Below, piece after piece: positions 4,370 to 34,119 of a DNA stretch of 64,000 nucleotides. The stretch's first letter is position 1; the number at the start of each line of letters is the position of its first letter. The translations under genes were made by a program, and so were the position numbers. A model generated the notes under the pieces. The model saw only the letters and a program-made list of their open reading frames with translations, was not told the DNA's origin and searched no databases. Origin of the DNA: Microbacterium faecale (GTDB taxonomy: Bacteria; Actinomycetota; Actinomycetes; Actinomycetales; Microbacteriaceae); contig NZ_BMHO01000001.1 in assembly GCF_014640975.1 (NCBI RefSeq), positions 258,166-322,165 of the forward strand, given 5' to 3'.

Positions 4370-6121
4370 TTATCCGGCGTTGTCGACGCAGGCGACCTCT
4401 GTCGACGAACGCGACCCGTCTGCGCGCTCGATGAGCACCTCGATGCACGTCTGCTCCCCCGACTGTCGTTCGATCGTGACCGTGGGGGATTCGGCGCGAC
4501 TGTCGAGCGCCGTGACGCGCTCCTCGTCGTAGATGCCCCAGAGGTAGGCGTCGCCGCGCTCCTCGTCGGGGTTCGACCACGTGAACCGGATCTCCTCGCC
4601 AATCGCGACGCCGCTCAGTTCGGTGACCGAATCCACGTCTCGCGCCGGCCCATCGGTGGGAACCTCCTCAACTGCGAGCGCCTGCATCACGGCGATCACG
4701 ACGAGCGCGACGGCGACGACGATGAGCACCACGAGTCCCCAGACGAGCAGCGGCCGCATCCGTGACGAGCGCGGCACCACGGTCGGCGCGGACGCCGGTG
4801 TCGGGACGGCCGGGACGGTCGCAGCCGCACCGCGGAAGGGTGCCGCGTCGGCGACGGGGACGCTGCCGCGCGCGAATTCCACGGGGGCGTTGAACTCATA
4901 CTCCGGCACTTCCGGTCCACGGTCGTCACGGCGAGCGACGGGCACATCCCCCGCCCCCGCGACCGGTGCCGGACGCACGAGAGTGTCGTCCTCGACCGCA
5001 TCGTCGACGACGGGCACGGCGAACGACGTCGGTGGTTCGGGAGGTCCCGCGGCCGGCGGCGTCGCGGCTGGCGCGTGGGACGACTCCGGGGCGAATCCGG
5101 CGGTGTCGCCGGTGGTGACCGGCGCGATGAACGGATCCGCCGGAGCCGGAGGGCGGACAGGCTCGACGGGTCGCGAGGCGACCTCGGTGAACGGGCGGAT
5201 CCGTGTCGTCCCGTCAGGGGTGTCGTCGACGACGTCGTGCGGGCCGTCGGCGCCATCATCGAAGATGTCGATCGCCGCGACCGGGTGACCAAGCTCCTGT
5301 TGCACCTCCTGCAGGGCGACCGCGAACGCGAGCGCCGATGGGTGGCGCTCCGCGGGATCCTTCGCCATCGCCTGCTCGAGCACGCGCGCGAGCGAGGTTG
5401 GCACGTCGGTGCGCTCGAGCGCGGGAAGCGGTGCGCGCTCGATCCGCTCGATCAGCGCCTCGGTGCCGTTCTCCCCACCGGGAGCTTCGAAGGGCGAGCG
5501 GCCCGCGAGAAGCGTATACACCGTCGCGCCGAGCTGGTACACGTCGCTGCGCGCATCGCCGCGCGGCGGATCCGCGAACGATTCGGGGGGCGACCACGGA
5601 ACCGAGACGCCCTGCGTTTCGTCGGGATGCACGTCCGACGACGCGATGCCGAAGTCGGTCAGCGCAGGCCGGTTGTATTCCGACACGAGAATATTTGCGG
5701 GTTTGATGTCGCGATGGAGCACGTTCGCGCGGTGCGCCGTCTCGACCGCGGCGGCGATCGGGATCCCGGTGGCGAGCGCTTCATCGACGGAGAAGGGCGC
5801 GCGGCGGTATCGCACCTGAAGGTTCGGACGCGGGCAGTACTCCATCACGAGGTAGGGTCGGCCGTCATCGGCGACGCCCGCCTCGTAGATCGCGACGATC
5901 GCGGGGTGCGCGCCGAGCATCGCCATGACGTTCGCCTCGGTCGTGAACTGCGCCGCGGACGTCGAGATGCGATCGGGCAGCAGCACCTTGATGGCGACAC
6001 GTCGGCGCGGCATCTTCTGCTCGTACAGGAATACGTCGGCGAACCCGCCCGAGCCGAGCAGCTGCAGATAGGTGAAGCCCGGGATCTCCGGCGGCGTCGA
6101 CGGCGCGCGCTTCATGGTCAC
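4370..6121 (-). CDS. PknB-like membrane serine/threonine protein kinase
   Basis: 583 residues. The N-terminal kinase domain (about 15-280) has the glycine loop LGSGGFADVF, catalytic lysine in VAIKVL, the catalytic loop HRDIKPANIL, and the DFGIA magnesium motif. A proline/alanine-rich juxtamembrane linker follows, then one membrane helix at about residues 460-485, placing a roughly 100-residue C-terminal beta-rich domain outside. No PASTA repeats are present. The GTG at 6121 overlaps the stop of the RDD gene; an ATG at 6115 is nearly as good and has a better-placed G-rich ribosome site. It is flanked by FHA genes, so its likely targets are those neighbours (inference). Confidence 0.88.
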   Translation of the reverse strand: MTMKRAPSTPPEIPGFTYLQLLGSGGFADVFLYEQKMPRRRVAIKVLLPDRISTSAAQFTTEANVMAMLGAHPAIVAIYEAGVADDGRPYLVMEYCPRPNLQVRYRRAPFSVDEALATGIPIAAAVETAHRANVLHRDIKPANILVSEYNRPALTDFGIASSDVHPDETQGVSVPWSPPESFADPPRGDARSDVYQLGATVYTLLAGRSPFEAPGGENGTEALIERIERAPLPALERTDVPTSLARVLEQAMAKDPAERHPSALAFAVALQEVQQELGHPVAAIDIFDDGADGPHDVVDDTPDGTTRIRPFTEVASRPVEPVRPPAPADPFIAPVTTGDTAGFAPESSHAPAATPPAAGPPEPPTSFAVPVVDDAVEDDTLVRPAPVAGAGDVPVARRDDRGPEVPEYEFNAPVEFARGSVPVADAAPFRGAAATVPAVPTPASAPTVVPRSSRMRPLLVWGLVVLIVVAVALVVIAVMQALAVEEVPTDGPARDVDSVTELSGVAIGEEIRFTWSNPDEERGDAYLWGIYDEERVTALDSRAESPTVTIERQSGEQTCIEVLIERADGSRSSTEVACVDNAG

Positions 6122-29530: not shown

Positions 29531-29610
29531 TCGGCTCCCGCGGCCGCACCGGAAGGCGGCGACGTGACCTTCACGCACCCGACCGAAGACCTCGAGATGA
29601 CGTTCGAGGC
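29531..29610 (+). pseudogene. Siderophore-binding protein gene, N-terminal fragment left of the transposon
   Basis: An open stretch in one frame directly after the pabC stop reads like the start of a mature siderophore-binding lipoprotein (GGDVTFTHPTEDLEMTFEA). It has no start codon, signal peptide or lipobox; these were lost at or near 29530. It is cut at 29610 by the transposon. Joining 29610 to 33783 (one GAGGC copy removed) continues the frame as FEA-QPETIIMDCY, so the transposon hit this gene. Confidence 0.72.
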
Positions 29611-29636
29611 TGTCCGATGACACGGCATCTGTAGTT
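29611..29636 (+). repeat. Left terminal inverted repeat
   Basis: 26 bp beginning TGTCCGATGACACGG and ending CTGTAGTT, directly after the GAGGC target duplication. It differs from the right repeat only at position 13. A further partial copy (CTGTAGTTTTG) lies at about 29730, as expected for a row of transposase-binding sites. Confidence 0.92.
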
Positions 29637-29709
29637 CTTGTCATCGATGTTGTGGAGGCGATCCGCGGGATCTCCGCTTTCGAGCGCCGGTCCAAGAGCG
29701 CCAGTGGCC

Positions 29710-30510
29710 CTATTCGCCTGTCAACGGAACTGTAGTTTTGAGGAGCCGGTCGAGCACCTGAGCGACGCCCTCATCGGCACACGAGGGCGCACCGTGCTGC
29801 GCGACCATCTGGACGGACTCGTGCGCGTTCGCCACTGCATAGCTTGTCCCGGCCCACATGATCATCGGGATGTCGTTGGGCATGTCGCCGAAGGCGATGA
29901 CATCGTCTGATCTGACATCGAGGCTTTCGCACAGGCTCTGGAGAGCGCTCGCCTTGGTGATACCGGCGGCGCTGATCTCCACCAGTCCGGAAACAGACCA
30001 GGTGACCGTCGCGGCGTCTCCGACGATCGCAGCAATCTGATCGTGGAGCAGATCGGCGTCTACGTCTGGATGCCTCACGAGAAGCTTGACCGCGGGGTCT
30101 GTCCAGATCTTCTCGAGCGGGCCGCGCGGTGCGCCGGGCGCGGGATACGGCTCGACGTACTCAGGGTCGAGGCGGATGCCATCGGTGCACTCGATCGCGA
30201 ACCGGGCGCCAGGGAGCGCTCCGGTGATCGCATCACAGACTTCCAACCCCACGTCCGAGCCGATGCCGACCAGCGACACGATCCGGCGCTCGTGTGCGTC
30301 GTACGTGATTGCGCCGTTGGAGACGATGGCTATGCCGTGATTGCCGACGTGAGGCCAGAAGGCATCCATCCAGCGGAGCGGCCGTGCTGTGACGAAGACG
30401 ACTGGCACTCCTGCGGTGTCCAGCCGGCGCAGCACACTCGCGGTGAACGGCGGCAACGCGACAGTGTCGTTCGGCACGAGTGTGCCGTCGAGATCCGTTG
30501 CGATCAGCAT
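29710..30510 (-). CDS. HAD-superfamily (Cof-type) phosphatase, transposon cargo
   Basis: 266 residues. The HAD motifs are visible: motif I DLDGTLVPND with the nucleophile Asp, motif II VFVTARP, the Lys in PAVKLLV, and motif IV AFGDMPNDIPMI. The large C2B cap is that of Cof/sugar-phosphate phosphatases. The ATG at 30510 is chosen because it starts directly on motif I and overlaps the NUDIX stop by seven bases; a longer frame exists but lies inside the NUDIX gene. The substrate is unknown. Confidence 0.85.
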   Translation of the reverse strand: MLIATDLDGTLVPNDTVALPPFTASVLRRLDTAGVPVVFVTARPLRWMDAFWPHVGNHGIAIVSNGAITYDAHERRIVSLVGIGSDVGLEVCDAITGALPGARFAIECTDGIRLDPEYVEPYPAPGAPRGPLEKIWTDPAVKLLVRHPDVDADLLHDQIAAIVGDAATVTWSVSGLVEISAAGITKASALQSLCESLDVRSDDVIAFGDMPNDIPMIMWAGTSYAVANAHESVQMVAQHGAPSCADEGVAQVLDRLLKTTVPLTGE

Positions 30511-30983
30511 CCGACTTCCGCGGCCATGTCTTCCCGCCTCGGAGCGTCGGCGATCACCCTGTCGATCCACGTTCGCCTGGGCAAAGTCCCGATCTGCGAT
30601 CTTTCGAACCATCCGAGCTCCAGGAGCTCCTCCATGTCTGGCTCCGCATCGCTCAGGAGCTCACATTCGTACGCGGTCGTGATGTAGCCGACGCGATCAC
30701 CGTTGGGGTACTCGACCATCATCGGCTCACCGCCGTAGACGCCCACGATTCCCGTCGCGCGAATCTTCGCCCCGGTCTCCTCCATCACCTCTCGGAGCAC
30801 AGCCTCTCCCGGTTCCTCCCCCGGCTCGACCGCTCCACCGATCAGGCTCCACAGTCCAGAGTGCTCATGGCGGGCGAGCAGGAACCTCTCTCCCTCGCGA
30901 ATGACGGCGGTCACCCCCGGCAAAAGCAGGAGATCCTGCCCGATGCGGCTGCGGATCGACTCGACGTACTCGGACCGGGGCAT
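30504..30983 (-). CDS. NUDIX hydrolase, transposon cargo
   Basis: 159 residues. The NUDIX box is complete: GGAVEPGEEP followed by EAVLREVMEETGAKI, with the metal-binding glutamates in REVMEE. The N-terminus ALTAV-type strand and C-terminal EELLELGWFE fit the MutT/ADP-ribose pyrophosphatase-like range. It overlaps and probably drives translation of the HAD phosphatase. A paired nucleotide or sugar-nucleotide degradation role is possible but unproven. Confidence 0.87.
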   Translation of the reverse strand: MPRSEYVESIRSRIGQDLLLLPGVTAVIREGERFLLARHEHSGLWSLIGGAVEPGEEPGEAVLREVMEETGAKIRATGIVGVYGGEPMMVEYPNGDRVGYITTAYECELLSDAEPDMEELLELGWFERSQIGTLPRRTWIDRVIADAPRREDMAAEVGC

Positions 30984-31034
30984 GCCGGTCAGTCTATTGA
31001 GGGCCGGCGCTCAGTCACGTCTACGATTCCCTTC

Positions 31035-31724
31035 ATGGACTACGTCGAGCTGACTGAGCGCTTCATCGAGGAGAGGTTTCCCGGTGCCGAGGTTGCTGTG
31101 ATCGGCGGGAGTACAGCCCGAGGCACTCGCACCAAGACGAGCGACATCGACCTGCTTCTGATCGGCGATGAGGTCTTCGCCGACGGCGCGTCCAGCCTCG
31201 CGGGCGCATGGGAGTACGACAGCGAGGTCTTCGAGGTGTTCGCTTACACCTACGACGCCTACACGAAGTGGGCGCGCGGCGGGATCGCGCAGTACCGTCC
31301 TGTGATCGTCGACTTGCTCCTCGACGGGCAGGAAGTGCGCGGTGGCGACGCCCTTACTCGACTCCGTGAGGAATGGGGCGCGAAGCTCGCCGAAGGTCCG
31401 CCGATAACCGACCATGAACTCGCGATGCGACGCTACGCGATCACGGACCTGATTGACGATCTTCGCGACGCAACCGATCCACTGGAGCAGAACGTCGTCG
31501 CGTGGGATCTTTTTGAGAAAGTCGCGGACCTGATGCTGCTCACCGACAAACACTGGATCGGCACGGGAAAGTACCTGGCGCGACGACTCCGGGAACTGAG
31601 CGTGAGCCGTACAGAACACCTCACGTCTCCCCTGCTGCAGGGAGATCTCATCACATTCGCGGACCGTGCTGAGCAGGAACTGATGCGCGCTGGCGGGCGA
31701 GTCCACGCAGGCTTCGTTCGCTGA
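31035..31724 (+). CDS. Nucleotidyltransferase-domain protein, transposon cargo
   Basis: 229 residues. The pol-beta-like motif GGSTARGTRTKTSDIDLLL (G-S-x10-D-x-D) and a second Asp in VIVDLLLDG give the three metal-binding acids. A helical C-terminal half follows. This layout is shared by aminoglycoside/lincosamide nucleotidyltransferases and by MNT-type enzymes. The ATG at 31035 begins the conserved N-terminal helix. It is divergent from the NUDIX-HAD pair across 51 bp and ends two bases from the tniQ stop. Antibiotic resistance or nucleotidylation of a cell target are both open. Confidence 0.78.
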   Translation: MDYVELTERFIEERFPGAEVAVIGGSTARGTRTKTSDIDLLLIGDEVFADGASSLAGAWEYDSEVFEVFAYTYDAYTKWARGGIAQYRPVIVDLLLDGQEVRGGDALTRLREEWGAKLAEGPPITDHELAMRRYAITDLIDDLRDATDPLEQNVVAWDLFEKVADLMLLTDKHWIGTGKYLARRLRELSVSRTEHLTSPLLQGDLITFADRAEQELMRAGGRVHAGFVR

Positions 31725-31726
31725 GG

Positions 31727-32797
31727 CTATGCATCGACCATCACAAGATCCGGCAACGGCCGGTGACGATCGAGCACGCGACTCCGCGGGACAGCGAGCC
31801 CAGGCTGATACGGCAGGATCTGGATCCGTACAGTGCTGAGGTGGCGAAGCAGACAGCTGCGGTGCCGCTGCGAAGAGGCGACGAGCGCCTTCTCGAGGGT
31901 CGCCGGGCGCTTGTTGTGCGCGTTCTGACGCATCCCGAACGCCGTTTCGACAGCGGCCTTTCCGCGAGTGACGATCTTCTCGGCGACGTCGTGCAGTCGC
32001 GCTGTTGTGGAGCCGCGCATGACCGTGATGACCGCTGCTTCGAGCGCCCATACTTGCTCGGCGAGACTGAATCGCGGACTGAGCAGGTAGCTCGCGAACG
32101 ACAGATCGGTCAGCACGGTGGCCAAGCGGACGACCTCGGGATATGCCGCGAGGAGGACAGCATCGGCGTCGAGCGTTCCCACCTCGAGCGCGGACATTCG
32201 GTCCTCGATCCGGGCATCTGGGCGCTCATCGGTCATCCAGCAGCGGATGAGCGTGGCAGCGAGTTGGAGCTCGCCGGTCGCAAGCCCGACGCCTCGCTTC
32301 CAGAGCGTGCCCGAGAGGCAGCGCTCGGCGTGCGCGTACTCGGGAAAGCTCGCGAGGTCGACGTCGGCGGCGTCGAGGTGCCATCGGCGGTGGCGGTTGC
32401 AGACAGCGCCACCTCTGCTGCGCACGGAGGTCTGGTCGCCGTCGGCGCAGCGTCGGCACGCAGATCGTGGAGCCTGCGTGTAGCCGCATCGTTTGCAGAG
32501 CGCGGGTTGCCAGCCGTAATGCTGGCAGCGGACGTACATGGCGTTTCGGCGCGCGTCGGCGTCGAAGTGGCCGGGGGCGAGAGCACCGAGTCGTTCGGTC
32601 CACGCGGCTGCGCGCTCGAGGTTCGGACGTGAGGGTGAAAGCCCAGCGAGATCGGTGACATGGAGCCGGAGATCACGCGGCGTGAGCGAGTTCGCGGTCG
32701 CGAGCCTTCCGAGAAATCCGGTCACCGTCTCCGCCGCAAGCGGCCGCACACGCAGCGGCAGTGCTCGCACATCCGCAGGCGGTATCGGACCTCTCAT
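31727..32797 (-). CDS. tniQ: TniQ/TnsD-like target-selection protein
   Basis: 356 residues. The N-terminal TniQ domain starts LPLRVRPLAAETVTGFLGRL. A zinc-finger set follows: CKRCGYTQAPRSACRRC, then C-x-RH near residue 140. The C-terminal half is helical. TniQ/TnsD proteins bind the target site and recruit the AAA ATPase. The gene overlaps tniB by four bases (ATGA). Its presence without an adjacent transposase is the odd point of this element. Confidence 0.85.
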   Translation of the reverse strand: MRGPIPPADVRALPLRVRPLAAETVTGFLGRLATANSLTPRDLRLHVTDLAGLSPSRPNLERAAAWTERLGALAPGHFDADARRNAMYVRCQHYGWQPALCKRCGYTQAPRSACRRCADGDQTSVRSRGGAVCNRHRRWHLDAADVDLASFPEYAHAERCLSGTLWKRGVGLATGELQLAATLIRCWMTDERPDARIEDRMSALEVGTLDADAVLLAAYPEVVRLATVLTDLSFASYLLSPRFSLAEQVWALEAAVITVMRGSTTARLHDVAEKIVTRGKAAVETAFGMRQNAHNKRPATLEKALVASSQRHRSCLLRHLSTVRIQILPYQPGLAVPRSRVLDRHRPLPDLVMVDA

Positions 32798-33648
32798 GTC
32801 GTGGCGGATGCCGTCCCGGACACGGGTGCAGGAACCGTGCCGAACACGCTGTCAAGATCGAGCCGTTCGCCTCCGCTGTCGATCGCGTCGATCGCGAGCA
32901 TCTGCAGCATCCCGGTGAGGTCGCCGATAACGCCGCCGGTCGCGGTATGGAGGTGGCTCGCGTGGCGGAGGATCGCCGCGGGCTGCTGGTCGATGAGCCC
33001 CAGGGAGCTCTCGACCGCGACCAGTAGATCAGCCCACGCCGCCTTGCCCTTACCGGTGTTCTCAAACGTGTGCAGGTGCATGATTTGGAACCTGCTGCTG
33101 ATCTGGCGTCCGCGGGTGCCGTCGAGCAGGCCGCTGGCTTCGACGTCTACGCCGGCGTAGACGAACGTGCCCGGGCACTTTTCGGACAGTTGCTTGAGCG
33201 TGTCGGAGGCTTCGCCCATCTGCTTGTACTTCTGGTTGAGGTTGTGGATCTCGTCCACGATGATCAGCTCGGTTCCGCATGCGGAGATCACGCTCGCGAC
33301 GGTGTTCATCAGCTCGCCGGTGTTGTAATGCGGGCGGATCGGGAGACCGAGGAAGTGCGCGAACTCGCCGAGCATCAGCTTCGGCGTGCACGACGGGGGC
33401 ACACTCACGTAGATCACTGGCACGGAGTTCGCACCACCGGCCCGGCCGATGTCGCGGCGGCGTCGCTCGAAGCGGCGGGCGATGTGTGAGACCGTCGTGG
33501 TCTTGCCGATGTTCGGTTCGCCCGACACGATGACGCCGAGTTTGCCGTGCGACTTGTACTGGTTCAGCATCAGCCGCCGGAGGATCTCGGTCTCGATCGC
33601 CGCGGAGCACCGGGCCGTTATGCGCGCGGCCGACGATGGGCCAGCCAT
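32794..33648 (-). CDS. tniB: TniB/TnsC-like transposition AAA ATPase
   Basis: 284 residues. Walker A is SGEPNIGKTTTVS (about 43-55), Walker B LIIVDEIHNLNQKYK, and the sensor region GTFVYAGVDV. This matches TniB/TnsC regulators that bridge target selector and transposase. The start at 33648 is the first good ATG; the N-terminus is somewhat short for the family and the frame stays open upstream, so a non-ATG start or truncation is possible. In Tn5053-type elements tniA lies upstream of tniB; here only repeats and the element end are found there. Confidence 0.87.
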   Translation of the reverse strand: MAGPSSAARITARCSAAIETEILRRLMLNQYKSHGKLGVIVSGEPNIGKTTTVSHIARRFERRRRDIGRAGGANSVPVIYVSVPPSCTPKLMLGEFAHFLGLPIRPHYNTGELMNTVASVISACGTELIIVDEIHNLNQKYKQMGEASDTLKQLSEKCPGTFVYAGVDVEASGLLDGTRGRQISSRFQIMHLHTFENTGKGKAAWADLLVAVESSLGLIDQQPAAILRHASHLHTATGGVIGDLTGMLQMLAIDAIDSGGERLDLDSVFGTVPAPVSGTASATT

Positions 33649-33751
33649 CGCGGAGGTCGTGCTCGATCTACGACCGGCCTGACGCCCAGAACCACAGATC
33701 GGTTGGCGAAAACTACAGGTCGTCTGTCACGACCACAGAATCGATGGCAGA

Positions 33752-33777
33752 AACTACAGATGCCTTGTCATCGGACA
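33752..33777 (-). repeat. Right terminal inverted repeat with internal repeat copies
   Basis: 26 bp, reverse complement of the left repeat except one base, followed by GAGGC. Between 33690 and 33750 at least two more related copies are seen (AACTACAGGTCGTCTGTCA and ACCACAGATCGGTTGGC), spaced about 35 bp, like the multiple transposase-binding sites at ends of Tn7/Tn5053-type elements. Confidence 0.88.
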
Positions 33778-34119
33778 GAGGCGCAGCCCGAGACGATCAT
33801 CATGGACTGCTACGCATACAGCTCGCTGCACGAGTACGGCATCGAGCCCGACGCGCTGTTCGGCTTCGATTGTGAGAACTCGTTCGTGATGGGCGACATC
33901 GACACCAGCGGCATCGAGCGCGTCGGCCAGGACGGCGAGATCGCCGCGCGCTACGCGGACCACGTCGTCGCCATGAAGGGCGGTGCTGTCGTGGGCACCG
34001 GCGATCCAGCGACCGTGATCACCGAGGATCTCGTCGCCGACGTGTTCGGCTTGGACGCGCGCGTGATCCCCGACCCGGAGTCCGGCAGTCCGCTCGTGGT
34101 GCCGCGCTGGCGGCACTGA
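33778..34119 (+). pseudogene. Siderophore-binding protein fragment fused to tail of a siderophore ABC ATPase
   Basis: After the GAGGC copy, the frame reads QPETIIMDCYAYSSLHEYG then FGFDCENSFVMGD, which is the N-terminal lobe of an iron-siderophore binding protein. At about 33945-33955 it switches, in frame, to RYADHVVAMKGG and VFGLDARVIPDP, the C-terminal end of a FepC/FecE-type ATPase, ending TGA at 34117-34119. An internal deletion has joined two genes of one uptake operon. It abuts the stop of the convergent export-protein gene. Not expected to be functional. Confidence 0.75.

What the first reader, a model, noticed from the sequence alone, without database searches (positions are those of the whole stretch)
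29611..33777. A TniB/TniQ transposon with intact ends but no transposase gene
Both 26-bp ends, the 5-bp GAGGC duplication, tniB and tniQ are present, yet no DDE transposase (TniA/TnsB) or resolvase lies inside; only about 100 bp separates the right end from tniB. TniB and TniQ cannot move DNA alone, so either the transposase is supplied from elsewhere or tniA was lost after insertion. Elements that keep the target-selection genes and lack the transposase are unusual and could be a minimal, trans-mobilised type.
Basis: partly seen in the sequence, partly recalled or inferred. Interest (0 to 1): 0.85.

Follow-up and report, generated by a model that had tools for sequence, protein, structure and literature searches.

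The report
Broken Tn7-like transposon, transposase deleted
This is a jumping element of a familiar kind that lost its cutting-and-joining genes in one internal deletion, so it is an ordinary crippled remnant rather than a new minimal type of transposon.

Summary
In detail: a 4167-bp element (29611-33777) with matching inverted ends, a perfect GAGGC duplication, tniQ, a tniB-like gene, three cargo genes and no transposase. The reading as a minimal, trans-mobilised type does not hold. In 366 Microbacterium genomes (own included), ten others carry a close relative, and all ten have tnsA, tniA (TnsB), full-length tniB and tniQ in one row; five of the ten have a detected pair of ends with a 5-bp duplication. 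The window copy has one junction at 33604/33605: tniB codon 66 is joined to the last ~28 codons of a DUF6176 cargo gene that lies whole beside the same kind of end in genome G054. The rest of that gene, tnsA, tniA and tniB codons 1-65 are missing. The joint was seen only in this genome. The genome has no match to a relative's TniA and no other site that resembles the ends beyond 12 bp. Four other genomes (G054, G080, G138, G161) hold differently broken kin, so decay is common here. Whether the deletion came before or after insertion is open. Verdict: defective Tn7-like element, low interest.

The parts
29606..29610 (.). target duplication GAGGC, left copy
   Evidence: sequence
29611..29656 (+). 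left terminal inverted repeat (TGTCCGATGACA...; 46 nt, 87% complementary to the right one; the repeat tool starts it one base earlier)
29710..30612 (-). cargo: Cof-type HAD-IIB hydrolase, 300 aa in the longest frame
   Evidence: PF08282 E 1.8e-41
30504..30983 (-). cargo: NUDIX hydrolase, 159 aa
   Evidence: PF00293 E 2.6e-18
31011..31724 (+). cargo: nucleotidyltransferase-domain protein
   Evidence: PF01909 E 6.5e-8
31727..32797 (-). tniQ, 356 aa, whole frame; 70-82% identical to nine relatives
32794..33648 (-). truncated tniB (TnsC-like AAA ATPase); homologous to relatives only up to 33603 (their residue 66 onwards); the first 15 residues of the open frame are not homologous
   Evidence: PF05621
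33604..33605 (.). deletion junction (position uncertain by up to ~9 bp)
   Evidence: homology of ten relatives ends at 33601-33604; DUF6176 match runs 33596-33679
33596..33682 (+). 3' remnant of a DUF6176 cargo gene (residues 80-107 of the 107-residue protein of G054)
   Evidence: tblastn E 1.1e-9, 89%; PF19673 for the whole gene in L106
33690..33777 (-). right end with sub-terminal repeats (CTGTAGTTT..TGCCA type), 90-91% identical over ~90 bp to the right end of the intact elements L051 and L053
33778..33782 (.). target duplication GAGGC, right copy
   Evidence: sequence

Best explanation
The element is an internally deleted, non-autonomous copy of a Microbacterium Tn7-like transposon. The intact form runs: right end - (cargo) - tnsA - tniA/tnsB - tniB/tnsC - tniQ - cargo - left end. 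Its ancestor carried a DUF6176 gene beside the right end. One deletion, estimated at 3-5 kb, ran from inside that gene to codon 66 of tniB and removed tnsA, tniA and the start of tniB. Shown: ends, 5-bp duplication, the junction with both cut genes, intact relatives, uninterrupted sites in other genomes. Inferred: that a single event made the junction, its size, that the copy cannot move unaided, and that intact kin moves as Tn7-like elements do (TnsB joins ends to target, TnsC/TniQ choose it).
For: Ten of ten close relatives have tnsA-tniA-tniB-tniQ in one row; five of them have paired ends with 5-bp duplications. Homology of the relatives stops at 33601-33604. The remaining 80 bp is the 3' end of a DUF6176 gene that is whole in G054 beside the same kind of end. 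Right end 90-91% like the intact L051/L053. Uninterrupted sites in G041, G071 and G122. Junction in 1 of 366 genomes.
Against: No intact element with the DUF6176 gene at its right end was found; both genomes that carry that module (G054, G161) are themselves broken, so the exact ancestor is inferred. The remaining tniB and tniQ frames are open and their pN/pS is not raised, which would also fit continued use. The nearest intact kin are only 73-81% identical in DNA.
Confidence: 0.92

Rival explanations
1. A stable, minimal, trans-mobilised element: the deleted form itself transposes with TnsA/TnsB supplied by an intact relative, and keeps tniB and tniQ for target choice.
For: Both ends and the duplication are perfect; the right end is 90-91% like that of intact elements, so a relative's TnsB might recognise it. 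G054 also has a 4.2-kb copy with both ends, duplication TCCAT and no tniA. tniQ and the tniB remnant are open frames.
Against: The junction was seen only in this genome of 366 (few candidates are scored per genome). No second copy of the ends and no related TniA in the host. tniB has lost its start and ~65 codons. G054's copy has a different deletion and keeps only tniQ residues 275-350, so nothing is conserved as a type. Perfect ends and duplication are expected of any insertion, whenever the deletion happened.
Confidence: 0.06
2. Assembly artefact: a mis-join created the junction.
For: Not tested against reads; the genome is a 4-contig assembly.
Against: The junction lies inside a 2.69-Mb contig. 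The only TniB match in the genome is this one, so there is no second copy to mis-join with.
Confidence: 0.02

Closest known systems
Intact elements of the same family in Microbacterium (L053/L148 = M. paulum 2C, G320; L051/L147 = uncultured Microbacterium, G358)
   Same: Right end 90-91% over ~90 bp; tniB 66-323 at 88-90% and tniQ at 76-78% protein identity; 5-bp duplications
   Different: 8.1 and 9.3 kb; carry tnsA, tniA and whole tniB; other cargo: no match to the window's HAD, NUDIX or nucleotidyltransferase genes
Broken kin in G054 (L106)
   Same: Same kind of right end followed by the DUF6176 gene, duplication TCCAT, 4217 bp, no tniA
   Different: Different deletion: tnsA residues 1-62, then tniQ residues 275-350; DUF6176 gene whole, DUF488 gene next
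Tn7 and Tn7-like transposons in general (PMC8649781 and PMC10293859, passages seen)
   Same: TnsA/TnsB/TnsC/TniQ set in the intact kin, variable cargo, 5-bp duplication
   Different: The window copy lacks TnsA and TnsB and has a shortened TnsC
Tn5053-type tniABQ elements (recalled, no call)
   Same: tniA-tniB-tniQ order in the intact kin
   Different: Intact kin also have tnsA upstream of tniA; no resolvase gene was recognised in the window element

Membership tests
Tn7-like transposon (by descent) | Inverted ends with repeated sub-terminal motifs | tested here: met
   that the motifs are TnsB sites is inferred
Tn7-like transposon (by descent) | 5-bp target duplication | tested here: met
   GAGGC; three genomes with the site uninterrupted
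Tn7-like transposon (by descent) | TnsC/TniB-type AAA ATPase | tested here: met
   PF05621, but N-terminus lost
Tn7-like transposon (by descent) | TniQ/TnsD target selector | tested here: met
   PF06527 in 10 of 10 members at E up to 1, best 8.4e-5; window member 0.0058, below Pfam's cut-off
Tn7-like transposon (by descent) | TnsB (TniA) DDE transposase | tested here: not met
   Absent from the window copy; present in 10 of 10 close relatives. The window copy is therefore filed as a remnant, not as a working member
Tn7-like transposon (by descent) | TnsA endonuclease (cut-and-paste Tn7-like elements) | tested here: not met
   Absent from the window copy; present in 10 of 10 close relatives by tblastn; PF08722 in L105 and L053 above, in L051 just below the cut-off
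Trans-mobilised minimal element | Same short form at more than one site or in more than one genome | tested here: not met
   1 of 366 genomes; no other ends in the host. The tool scores few candidates per genome, so a copy could be missed
Trans-mobilised minimal element | A related transposase in the same cell | tested here: not met
   No match to a relative's TniA at E 0.1. PF09299 search had no ringing control; six PF00665 places not examined one by one
Trans-mobilised minimal element | Movement when transposase is supplied | not testable with these tools
   Needs a bench assay

The most novel reading that the evidence does not exclude
The internally deleted form still transposes, or did so after the deletion, whenever a cell also holds an intact relative. 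Shortened copies that keep both ends (this one, G054) would then be a mobile, non-autonomous class of Tn7-like elements that carries small cargo sets while keeping its own target-selection gene.
Probability: 0.07. Interest if true: 0.4.

Novelty: new member of a known kind. Interest (0 to 1): 0.15.

Why it matters
It shows that a tidy tniB-tniQ element with perfect ends and duplication can be a plain deletion remnant, and that the telling sign is a junction that cuts a gene on each side. It also gives a small natural series of intact and broken copies of one Tn7-like family in Microbacterium.

Tried and rejected
A transposase frame missed inside the element: not found in the ORF list, in Pfam scans of five genes, or by tblastn with a relative's TniA.

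A transposase elsewhere in the genome: PF09299 gave nothing, but no control genome rang either, so that is weak. PF00665 gave six places with open frames of 134-432 aa, which I did not examine one by one. A relative's TniA gave no match at E 0.1; the same query finds TniA in the relatives.

Further ends in the genome: 12 sites with one mismatch to the 12-bp tip, two of them (C1:484302 and C1:488073) facing each other 3.8 kb apart; none matches an end beyond the tip.

Plasmids: 29 of 72,556 records match, none over 80% of the element; the best is a Microbacterium plasmid, 43% of the element at 75%.

TniQ fold: the model came out at mean pLDDT 50.5, so it was not used for a fold search. PDB profile search with TniQ: no match at E 1. 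Defence-gene models: hits of cargo only to candidate (PDC) models, best E 3.5e-10 for the NUDIX protein; the tniB remnant hits a TnsC model, E 1.1e-8.

Age of the deletion by relaxed selection: pN/pS of the window's tniQ (mean 0.24) and tniB 66-323 (0.16) is not raised against the relatives (0.26-0.40 and 0.13-0.22), so it gives no date.

Papers: three searches; in the listings I saw nothing on this Microbacterium family; one search listed 15 of 27 papers. Passages of two papers were seen (12 of 18 and 5 of 5 places). This does not show that nothing is in print.

Full report
What is there. The element spans 29611-33777 (4167 bp). Its ends begin TGTCCGATGACA and agree in 25 of 26 bp; the inverted repeat runs to 46 nt at 87%. 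GAGGC flanks it on both sides. Inside are a Cof-type HAD hydrolase, a NUDIX hydrolase, a nucleotidyltransferase-domain protein, tniQ and a tniB-like gene. TniQ is only weakly recognised by Pfam (E 0.0058, below the cut-off), but 10 of 10 aligned members match PF06527 at E up to 1, best 8.4e-5. In the 3.12-Mb genome the exact 12-bp tip occurs only at these two places; 12 more sites have one mismatch, and none of them matches an end further in.

The insertion is precise. Joining the flanks with a single GAGGC gives an open frame across the site. A search of 149 Microbacterium genomes with 171 bp of the joined flanks gave matches in 42, mostly short; three besides the own genome match continuously across the insertion point: G041 (80%), G071 (82%) and G122 (79%); a fourth, G124, matches only from three bases before the duplication onwards.

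The gene called tniB is cut short. The close relatives match only from residue 15-17 of the window protein, and in DNA from window 33601-33604. In nine of these loci, 61-65 residues precede the point where the match begins; the exact start codons are uncertain.

The relatives are complete. All ten have tnsA, tniA, whole tniB and tniQ in one row by tblastn (the loci of G333, G358 and G320 are identical to L049, L051 and L053). PF08722 (TnsA) was tested in three sequences: above the cut-off in L105 and L053, just below in L051. TniA of L053 matches TnsB chains of the PDB, best E 9.6e-9, but Pfam's Mu-transpos_C and rve models match it only below their cut-offs, and L051's TniA had no Pfam match. 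D290, D394 and E430 are invariant in the eight TniA sequences aligned, of the ten; that they are the catalytic triad is my reading. Paired ends with equal 5-bp flanks were found in five of the ten: G320, G358, G211, G275 and G172. G274 has two ends with unequal flanks; in G253, G333, G164 and G350 only one end was found in the stretch held.

The other side of the gap. The ~80 bp between the right end and the truncated tniB does not resemble the intact elements L051 and L053. It matches G161 and G054 at 84-86%, together with the end. In G054 it is the 3' end of a 107-codon DUF6176 gene (PF19673); in G161 the related frame is broken. In the window, residues 80-107 of that protein are left (33596-33679), abutting TniB residue 66 at 33603. 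One junction thus cuts two unrelated genes, which is the mark of a deletion. The size is an estimate of mine: 2.9 kb if the ancestor was laid out like L053, nearer 5 kb if like L105.

Recurrent decay. Four further genomes hold broken kin. G054: both ends, duplication TCCAT, tnsA residues 1-62 followed by tniQ 275-350. G161: tniA residues 1-387, no tniB or tniQ match, an rve-type transposase of IS3 appearance, ends with unequal flanks. G080: tniQ residues 150-353 in two frames and one end. G138: two pieces of tnsA some 1.6 kb inside a changed end. G093 has two ends with unequal flanks and no tnsA or tniA match between them; the genes there look like an ABC transporter and a two-component system by eye. 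No intact element with DUF6176 at the right end was found.

No sign of movement in trans. The junction was seen in one genome of 366, with the caveat that few candidates are scored per genome. The host has one TniB and no match to a relative's TniA. Differences in tniQ and tniB are like those between intact copies, so either the deletion is recent or the genes are still used; the test cannot tell. Whether the deletion came before or after insertion is open.

In print. Tn7-like transposons with variable cargo are well described; PMC10293859 also mentions loci with a TniQ too short for target choice that might recruit selectors in trans. In the passages I saw nothing dealt with transposase-less copies; neither paper was read in full.

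The own-genome ends were examined further. The odds of the trans-mobilised rival and of the novel case are set at 0.06 and 0.07.

Noticed in passing
L037 14192-14359, L038 14231-14397, L040 2-79, L042 6462-6586, L051 5713-5877, L144 9938-10066; also L043-L047, L105-L107, L109, L111, L114, L145: A conserved ~165-bp sequence (a terminator-like hairpin, then TTGCACCAAGAGTGTCCTGCAATCACATG and a promoter-like stretch) lies within about 60 bp outside the tnsA-side end in 6 of the 10 close relatives, and near tnsA in 5 of 6 more distant Tn7-like elements looked at (L043-L048): it looks like a shared attachment site of Microbacterium Tn7-like elements. Rfam gave no match above its cut-offs in the stretch searched.
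   Followed up: partly
G000:C3:21042-21177 (L116): The window's own genome has one copy of that attachment-like sequence (78%) with no end-like tip on its contig; the window element sits elsewhere.
   Followed up: partly
29564-29610 and 33783-34119: The interrupted frame looks by eye like the start of a siderophore-binding protein joined to the tail of an ABC-transporter ATPase, so the target may already have been a fused pseudogene. Pfam found nothing in the right-hand piece.
   Followed up: partly
L106 7544-7711 and 9556-9715: G054 has two copies of the attachment-like sequence about 2 kb apart; the frame between them reads by eye like a glutaminase.
   Followed up: no
L038 2022-14207: In G211 a 12.2-kb element with duplication GAGTG contains a further end at 4912, and a second, more distant tnsA-tniA set (41% and 33%) lies beyond tniQ, which suggests stacked insertions.
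   Followed up: no
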